Below are positions 4,699 to 7,700 of a stretch of DNA of 64,000 bases, one piece after another. The position numbers and the translations under genes are program-made. The first letter of the stretch is position 1. Each line of letters starts with the position of its first letter. The stretch covers positions 28,866,740 to 28,930,739 of the forward strand of contig CAIIXF020000009.1 of NCBI GenBank assembly GCA_903813345.2, given 5' to 3'. Origin of the DNA: Owenia fusiformis (Eukaryota > Annelida > Polychaeta > Sabellida > Oweniidae). Under the pieces are notes generated by a model, which saw only the letters and a list, made by a program, of their open reading frames with translations, ran no database searches and was not told the DNA's origin.

Positions 4699-4791
4699 GG
4701 TGAGCTAGAAAGCCAGCTTCTACAGGCTAATCCTATACTGGAGGCCTATGGCAATGCGAAAACCATCAAGAATGACAATTCGTCACGTTTT
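4699..4791 (+). CDS. Myosin alternative exon 'a' (switch I region)
   Basis: Encodes 31 residues from GELESQLLQ to NDNSSRF, phase 0 at both ends, after CTGTACAG and before GTAAGT. It covers the end of loop 1, the following helix and the start of switch I. It has EAYGNA and KTIKN where the sister exon at 5238 has EAFGNA and KTTKN. The identical length and phase of the two exons imply mutually exclusive use. Confidence 0.9.
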
Positions 4792-7700
4792 GTAAGTACA
4801 CACCTATGTTGTGATGTGCTGTGCATGAATACAATCTGCTGCGGGTTACATGAGTAAAGTGGCACTGACTAGAACTACTTTTTCTTGAATTTTTGAATTC
4901 AGGATGTGTCACTTTGATCATGGCTTGTTATTAGCTACCAAGCAAAGCTAGTACACACATGTAGGGGGGAATATCCCATATCCCATAGAGATATTGTTTC
5001 TTTAGTTGAAGAGAGCATATCAGAATGGGCTAATAGAATAAGAAACGTCGCAAAGTTCAGACATCGAAAGAAAAATTGTGGATCAAAAAAGACCGATGTG
5101 ACATTGGAGTTCTAACATGGGACTATATGAATAGGGTTATTCCTCCTGTAATGTGTGAATTGGCTAATTCTTTAGCTAACCCTAGACAATGTTGTAAAAT
5201 ATGTTACTCTTAATATTTACCCTTCGTGGGCTAACAGGGGGAGCTTGAGACTCAGCTGTTACAGGCCAACCCGATCTTGGAGGCATTTGGTAATGCAAAG
5301 ACTACAAAAAATGACAACTCATCTAGATTCGTAAGTAGAAACATCCAGAGCATGTAGTACCTGGTAAAGGTGTATACCAGGTTTTCTCACATCACATCAA
5401 AGTGCCCTCTCTACCTTTTCTCCCCTGACTTTGTTTCATCTTCTTGCATAGTTTTTCACCATTTGGTCCTTCCTTAACCATTATGTGTTTCTCTACTGTT
5501 ACATTCAGTCACCTTTTTGTGTTCTTGTTCACACGTGTTCAGTGAAGCTAATTTTGTGTGATAACACCTGTATTTCACTTGAAATCAACATTTATTCATC
5601 CTTCATTGTGAAATCTTCATTTCCCACTCTACAAGAGGGAAGTTCCTCCTAACCTGTTCATGATTAAACACCACCCCTTATACCTTTCCCTATCACAGAC
5701 AAATATGTACATTTCCTCAAAAGGAAATAGTCCATTTTAGGAAATCCCATCAATATACCCCCTAATCCTTTACTTACTTTTTGCACCTCTGTATTCAGTA
5801 CTAATTAGTGTGTCTTCTCATACACATAAGAAACAATTCAAATACACAGTTGTTAGACTTTAGAGGTTGTAGAAGCTTTTTAGGTCATAGTTGGTGAATA
5901 CAAACATGTAATATATTGTAAGGTGAGAAAGTTAATCAATAGAATTGATATCTGACAAATAGACCTATTGTTAAAAGATGACTTATGACCTATTGTTAAA
6001 ACAGGCCATACCGAATAGACCTGTGATAGTAGACAGGTCATAGTAAATAGACCTGTGAAAAATAAACAGACCATACCAAATAGACCTGTGATAAATAGAC
6101 AGATAGGCATGTGATGAAAACAGGCCATACCAAATAGACCTGTGATAGTAGACATGTCATAGTAAATAGACCTGTGAGAAATAAACAGATCATAGTTAAT
6201 AGACCTGTGATAAATAGAAAGATAGGCATGTGATGAAAACAGGCCGTACTGAATAGACCTGTGATAGTAGACAGGTCATAGTAAATAGACCTGTGAGAAA
6301 TAAACAGACCATACCAAATAGACCTGTGATAAATATACAGATCATACTAACTAGACCTATGATGAAATAGACAGATAGACCTATGTAAATAGACCTTTGA
6401 TGAATAGACAGATCATAGAAAATAGACCATAATTGATGAATAAACCCTCATAAATAGGCGAATGATAGATAAACCTACTCAGAAAACCTATGGTATAGAT
6501 TAGACCTATTGTAGACCTATGGTAGTGGACCTGATCACCTTATAGTCAAGATCTTCATTAATGCATGCACCCTCCTCTATATCCACACACCCTCTCACTA
6601 TATCATACACGGTTGAAGATTTGCTCTGGACTTCTTTAATCCAGTTACATACTAGGAAAGCATCAAATCATCAATATACACCAAAAACAATTTTTATACC
6701 TTCCATCATCTTCTTACAAAAAAACGTTTCAAATGTTCAGCCTCCATTATAGATAAAAGGTTTTACATATTCCTCTTCCCTTGAATATTACTAGTCAATA
6801 TAAGAATACATTGGCGGCTGTTACCTTAACCTTCAGAATGTTCTTGTGCCATTTTGAAAGTTGAAAGTTCCAGCAATGGCTGTCATTGTATTCTGATATT
6901 GACCATGTAACATACTTACGTTTTTGTGTATATGTTGATTTGATAGTGTACCTGTATAAGGTACTCAAGGTAGGTGCTTGTTATAGAATAGATCGATTAC
7001 ATGTAGAGTGTGTAAGGTAAGTTGTTACCTGGGTGTGGTTATGTACATTGAGTATGTAACAGTGCAAGCCACAAAATACTTAAAAATGATGTCCACAAAT
7101 GAAACTTTCCATTTACTCACTCTAACATCCCTGTAATTTTGCAACATCTTTTTGTTACTTCAGACAAATAGCACTGTCAGTTTATTGATCATAACTTCAG
7201 ATGTGATCTGTTGTGAGTAACCATGGAAATCTAGTTGATAAAAGAGTTCTGTGGGTTGCACTGTGTGAATTATTTCATAATTTCCTTAAATCACATAAAA
7301 ATGTTGCAAATAAATATTATTGGGATATGATTTTGAAGTGAAATAAAGTTCCTGAGTAAAGCAAAGGTAATGCAAATATGTTAAAAATTTGGAATTTTTA
7401 TTGAAACGAAAAAAAGTACAGAATACATGCTATAATTGCAATGTTTTATTTGTATATAAATGCCTTAACTATCATTATCTTTATGTTAAATCTTTTCCTC
7501 AGTTTTTATGCATCCTGGGTATTTGAAACTATTCCAAAAACTGTTATCTTATCCAGGCTACTTAACTGTGCCAAATATAGTCATGTCAATGTTAAATTAA
7601 AGTTGACATTTTATAAATGCTTTCTGTGTATCCACCTTATAATTTGATATTTTACGCAATTGATCCCTAGACTTGTTTGGCAGTCAGTTTCAATTTTAGT

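What the first reader, a model, noticed from the sequence alone, without database searches (positions are those of the whole stretch)
4699..5330. Tandem, probably mutually exclusive exons at switch I of a non-muscle myosin II
Two 93-nt exons, both phase 0/0 with good splice sites, encode alternative versions of the loop 1 edge, helix and switch I start. They differ at only a few positions: SQ/TQ, EAY/EAF and KTI/KTT. Changing Phe to Tyr and Ile to Thr next to the nucleotide pocket could tune ATPase or ADP release. Vertebrate NMII varies loop 1 by small inserts instead. I do not know this arrangement in vertebrates and cannot check other phyla here.
Basis: partly seen in the sequence, partly recalled or inferred. 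Interest (0 to 1): 0.72.

Follow-up and report, generated by a model that had tools for sequence, protein, structure and literature searches.

The report
Duplicated switch-I exon in non-muscle myosin
A non-muscle type myosin II gene carries two interchangeable, long-conserved versions of the exon that forms an edge of its ATP pocket, which probably lets one gene make two slightly different motors.

Summary
Exons 1a (4699-4791) and 1b (5238-5330) are each 93 nt, phase 0/0, with AG/GT sites. [quoted passage not shown] Counting one copy, 31 exons join to 5150 nt without a stop. Synonymous sites are saturated while dN is 0.058, and identical codons are no commoner than random draws give (7 of 28, 10.7 expected): an old duplication with both copies under purifying selection. 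Both exons have splice sites among the weakest in the gene. GCATG (RBFOX core) lies just downstream of both and within 100 nt of 0 of 30 other donors. Mutually exclusive splicing is the best explanation; no RNA data could be examined. The device is known in kind: muscle Mhc "cluster-3" duplicates the same segment (PMC3912159), and scallop versions differ at two of the same three sites, with weak statistics. Ten searches of the held papers listed no report of it in a non-muscle/smooth gene. Outside vertebrates the smooth and non-muscle heavy chains are not separate genes (PMC5167519, passages), so a one-gene, two-motor reading is testable.

The parts
4699..4791 (+). exon 1a: end of loop 1 to end of switch I, version with S5, Y17, I23; 93 nt, phase 0/0
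5238..5330 (+). exon 1b: the same segment, version with T5, F17, T23; 93 nt, phase 0/0
4792..5237 (+). intron between the two versions, 446 nt; AG-free zone before the 1b acceptor only 50 nt
4822..4827 (+). TGCATG (RBFOX-type motif) 31-36 nt after the 1a donor; candidate splicing enhancer
   Evidence: function inferred
5350..5354 (+). GCATG 20-24 nt after the 1b donor; candidate splicing enhancer
   Evidence: function inferred
7901..7964 (+). next exon ([21 protein letters not shown]), common acceptor for both versions
4699..29497 (+). smooth/non-muscle type myosin II heavy chain gene, part in the window: 31 exons counting one of the pair, 1716 residues without a stop; N-terminal exons lie upstream of the window, the last exon is unsettled

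Best explanation
The two exons are mutually exclusive versions of the loop-1/switch-I exon of the smooth/non-muscle type myosin II heavy chain gene in this window, made by an old tandem exon duplication and kept by selection. Each mRNA takes one of them between the unseen P-loop exon and the exon at 7901. Shown: the duplication, intact frames and splice sites, constraint, weak splice sites, the gene's identity. Inferred: that splicing is exclusive; that a regulator, most likely an RBFOX-type factor acting on GCATG downstream of weak 5' splice sites, takes part in the choice; that Y17F and I23T beside an unchanged switch I tune ATPase or ADP release between cell types.
For: Same length and phase, canonical sites. 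Synonymous saturation (23 differences on 21.4 sites) with dN 0.058; 7 of 28 degenerate same-residue codons identical, 10.7 expected for independent draws, P(7 or fewer) 0.094; a neutral simulation kept 28 or more of 31 residues in 0 of 2000 runs at each of four mutation loads. Splice sites weak against the 30 other exons: donors 1a and 1b exceed only 2 and 1 of 30, acceptors only 3 and 0 of 30. GCATG within 100 nt downstream of both, of 0 of 30 other donors. The same segment is a mutually exclusive pair in muscle Mhc genes (PMC3912159). A UGCAUG-RbFox route is reported for the vertebrate NMHC IIB1 exon (PMC13158602, passage).
Against: No transcript was seen. The donor weakness is partly due to the Phe codon at the exon end. 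95 of 435 other donor pairs also share some pentamer private to them within 50 nt, so the GCATG sharing has weight only through the motif's known role, and 8 patterns had been scanned. GCATG after both exons does not by itself make a switch. No mechanism enforcing exclusivity was found: intron 446 nt, RNA pairing not significant, AG-free zones 20 and 50 nt. Including both or neither would keep the frame, so frame alone would not trigger decay of wrong mRNAs. The three substitutions are mild.
Confidence: 0.77

Rival explanations
1. Splicing is exclusive, but the two versions are functionally near-equivalent; the pair is kept for the regulation or robustness of the mRNA rather than for different kinetics.
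For: Only three mild differences, none in the NDNSSRF motif.
Against: The scallop muscle pair differs at two of the same sites, which hints at a functional role, though the overlap is not significant among family-variable sites (0.15).
Confidence: 0.2
2. One exon is constitutive and the other is an unused relic.
For: Both exons, 1b most, have weak splice sites.
Against: Saturated synonymous change with 28 of 31 residues identical; 0 of 2000 neutral runs keep as much.
Confidence: 0.04
3. Both exons can be included together, or the exons are independently skipped (cassette splicing rather than exclusive choice).
For: The 446-nt intron is long enough to splice and each exon is a multiple of three; no enforcing structure found.
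Against: Double inclusion duplicates switch I; double skipping removes it. Either should ruin the motor (inference from the conserved motor fold).
Confidence: 0.07
4. The pair is inherited from before the split of the striated and smooth/non-muscle genes (one ancestral cluster-3) rather than duplicated independently. This concerns origin and is compatible with the best explanation.
For: Same segment; two of three differing sites shared with the scallop pair; by PMC3912159 the 5' exon (3a) belongs to the striated and 3b to the catch isoform, so in both pairs the 5' exon would have Tyr17 and the 3' exon Phe17 (that 2os8 is the catch isoform is recalled).
Against: Overlap chance 0.022 over all sites but 0.15 among variable sites; coupling differs (scallop Y with T, F with V; here Y with I, F with T); both window exons are closer to NM2B (27 and 28 of 31) than to any of the four muscle sequences compared and share its K24 and D26. 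The text of PMC3912159 implies that cluster-3 arose in the ancestor of annelids and molluscs.
Confidence: 0.06

Closest known systems
Cluster-3 mutually exclusive exons of muscle Mhc (scallops, Crassostrea Mhc2, Aplysia, Biomphalaria, Lottia Mhc5/Mhc6, Capitella, squid; PMC3912159)
   Same: Same protein segment, end of loop 1 to end of switch 1; tandem pair; sites 17 and 23 differ in the scallop pair too.
   Different: That is the striated muscle gene; this is the smooth/non-muscle gene. Residue combinations differ and site 5 differs here, site 9 there.
Cluster-0 of ctenophore Mnemiopsis Mhc2 (PMC3912159)
   Different: A longer exon with other boundaries, loop 1 nine residues longer in one version, muscle-type gene.
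Vertebrate NMHC IIB/IIC loop-1 alternative splicing (B1 exon, RbFox-regulated)
   Same: Alternative splicing near the nucleotide pocket of a non-muscle myosin II; UGCAUG enhancer (PMC13158602, passages).
   Different: An extra exon is included or skipped there; here one of two equal-length versions would be chosen and loop length does not change.

Membership tests
Mutually exclusive exon cluster (general) | Neighbouring exons of similar sequence, similar length and same reading-frame phase (the prediction criteria named in PMC3912159) | tested here: met
Mutually exclusive exon cluster (general) | Exactly one version per transcript | not testable with these tools
   no RNA data; upstream exon outside the window
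Mutually exclusive exon cluster (general) | A mechanism enforcing exclusivity (steric limit, competing RNA structures, distant branch point) | tested here: inconclusive
   none found in one sequence: intron 446 nt, six duplex tests not significant, AG-free zones 20 and 50 nt; no relatives to compare
[quoted passage not shown]
   protein span against the definition in PMC3912159; base-exact muscle exon borders were not compared
Muscle Mhc cluster-3 | Lies in a striated-muscle type Mhc gene | tested here: not met
   650 bits to NMIIB against 460 or less to the striated myosins shown
Smooth/non-muscle myosin II heavy chain | Motor closer to NMII/smooth than to striated myosin II, with a coiled-coil tail | tested here: met
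RBFOX-regulated alternative exon | (U)GCAUG in the intron downstream, needed for inclusion | tested here: inconclusive
   motif present after both exons and within 100 nt of 0 of 30 other donors; need for it not tested

The most novel reading that the evidence does not exclude
One smooth/non-muscle gene makes two kinetically distinct motors by swapping its switch-I exon, one for smooth or other contractile cells and one for general cytoskeletal use: a splicing solution to what vertebrates did by gene duplication, under RBFOX-type control, and reached independently at the same residues as molluscan muscle Mhc.
Probability: 0.22. Interest if true: 0.75.

Novelty: new variant of a known kind. Interest (0 to 1): 0.5.

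Why it matters
Mutually exclusive motor exons of myosin II are described for muscle-type genes (PMC3912159). In the smooth/non-muscle gene they would mean that the cytoskeletal motor too is tuned at its nucleotide pocket by splicing. According to PMC5167519 (passages) smooth and non-muscle heavy chains became separate genes only in vertebrates, so elsewhere one gene has to serve both uses. The pair is also a small natural experiment: three substitutions beside an unchanged switch I, held apart by selection.

Tried and rejected
Competing intronic RNA pairing: six pairs of 100-nt regions against 60 mononucleotide shuffles each; 6, 28, 19, 35, 15 and 22 of 60 shuffles did as well, so none is significant. 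A hairpin about 28 nt after the 1b donor: z -1.33, 18 of 200 shuffles as good. Distant branch point as reported for OGDH (start of abstract of PMC7969005, listing): AG-free zones only 20 and 50 nt. Steric exclusion: the intron is 446 nt. More duplicated exons in this gene: none found beyond coiled-coil self-similarity. Same-site recurrence with scallop: suggestive but weak (0.022 over all 29 comparable sites, 0.15 over the 11 variable ones). Selection for codon difference between the copies: 7 identical codons against 10.7 expected, P 0.094, not significant. That 2os8 is the catch-muscle isoform is recalled; the listing calls it only 'Myosin heavy chain'. Relatives: one viral-contig scan gave 19 pattern matches and no confirmed relative; no collection of animal genomes was on offer. 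The species was not identified.

Literature: ten searches. Four listings were capped (20 of 36; 19: 20 of 630; 36: 15 of 23; 47: 10 of 21). In what was listed I saw no title or abstract start that reports mutually exclusive exons in a non-muscle or smooth myosin II heavy chain gene. Searches list 9 and 8 papers, 15 different ones together; I looked into four of them (PMC3912159: abstract, sections 8, 12, 13 and passages; PMC2257972, PMC11944230, PMC6855841: passages); the other 11 were seen as listing and abstract start only. Also seen by passages: PMC5583752, PMC5167519, PMC13158602. Supplements and CyMoBase were not available.

Full report
What is there. The + strand carries a myosin II heavy chain gene from 4699 to about 29.5 kb. 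A recalled MYH9 query found its exons in order. After border correction 31 exons (one of the pair counted) join to 5150 nt and 1716 residues without a stop, all 31 flanked by AG and GT. The first 406 residues score 650 and 649 bits against the NMIIB chains, 643-645 against NMIIA, 620-632 against smooth-muscle chains, 595 against NMIIC and 460 or less against the striated myosins shown (60 of 150 matches shown). So the smooth/non-muscle label is right. The P-loop exon was not found in the window; the intron before 4699 is then longer than about 4.6 kb.

The pair. 4699-4791 and 5238-5330 are as described: 93 nt, phase 0/0, differing at S5T, Y17F and I23T. Each is recognised as Myosin_head by itself. 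By the aligned ranges, the sites are 216, 228 and 234 of the 4pd3 chain and 213, 225 and 231 of the 1lvk chain. The NDNSSRF stretch, which I know as switch I (recalled), is identical in both.

More than chance. The copies share 66 of 93 bases, and 21 of the 27 differences are at third positions. Synonymous sites are saturated (23 differences on 21.4 sites) while dN is 0.058. Identical codons are no commoner than independent draws from the gene's codon usage give (7 of 28, 10.7 expected). The 60-nt flanks are 22% and 35% identical. So the duplication is old and neither copy has been free to drift for long: a neutral simulation kept 28 of 31 residues in 0 of 2000 runs at each of four loads.

Splicing anatomy. 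Scored with a matrix from the other 30 exons, the pair has some of the weakest sites in the gene: only 2 (1a) and 1 (1b) of 30 donors and 3 and 0 of 30 acceptors score lower. The donor result is partly due to the Phe codon at the exon end; that does not apply to the acceptors. GCATG begins 32 nt (as TGCATG, 31 nt) after the 1a donor and 20 nt after the 1b donor, and within 100 nt of 0 of the 30 other donors. If two carriers fell at random on 32 donors, the chance that they are this pair is 1/496, about 0.016 after allowing for the 8 patterns scanned (my arithmetic). Against this, 95 of 435 other donor pairs share some pentamer private to them within 50 nt, so the weight rests on the motif's known role: a passage of PMC13158602 says that RbFox3 binding to intronic UGCAUG of NMHC IIB1 causes inclusion of the B1 exon. 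A further TGCATG lies at 4381, upstream of 1a, and one at 6562. Intron length, RNA pairing and AG-free zones gave no enforcing mechanism.

Known relatives. Kollmar and Hatje (PMC3912159; abstract, sections 8, 12 and 13, and passages; [quoted passage not shown] PDB sequences of scallop myosins show two versions, EAYGNAKTT (1dfk, 1b7t, 2ec6 and others) and EAFGNAKTV (2os8). Two of the three differing sites there (17 and 23; positions 3-31 compared) also differ here, in other combinations; among family-variable sites this overlap is not significant (0.15). Both window exons share K24 and D26 with NM2B and are closest to it (27 and 28 of 31), which favours an independent duplication.

Function. 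[quoted passage not shown] A gene of this type with an exchangeable pocket exon could supply more than one use. This is inference; organism and expression are unknown here.

Verdict. Observation confirmed; interpretation supported but not proven. The kind of device is known in muscle genes. Its place in the smooth/non-muscle gene was not seen in the ten literature searches, four of whose listings were capped.

Noticed in passing
21629-23282: Minisatellite of 29 copies of a 57-nt unit, 99% matching, inside a tail intron of the myosin gene.
   Followed up: partly
5998-6342: 119-nt tandem repeat (2.9 copies, 92% matching) in the intron after exon 1b.
   Followed up: no
13780-15900: By eye: two long blocks in one intron, each present twice in the same orientation and nested A-B-B-A, nearly identical; looks like a young repeat insertion. 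Not computed.
   Followed up: no
8765-9370: By eye: long inverted repeat (GGAATATTCCTTGCCA... and its complement) in the intron 8684-9555, like a short transposon. Not computed.
   Followed up: no
30811-30820: After the last placed exon (29304-29497) an acceptor-like site is followed by CTCCAAGTAA, which could be a short terminal exon (S-S-K-stop) or, read to the GTAAGT, a 6-nt microexon; the end of the gene is unsettled.
   Followed up: no
50330-51565 (+): Gly/Met/Pro-rich frames ending in [10 protein letters not shown] and containing KPLFPSAGQ, which resemble ZNF207/BuGZ from recall; two of the frames gave no Pfam hit.
   Followed up: partly
42789-44003 (-): 404-aa Thr/Ser-rich open frame ending in a membrane-span-like stretch, mucin-like; no Pfam hit.
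   Followed up: partly
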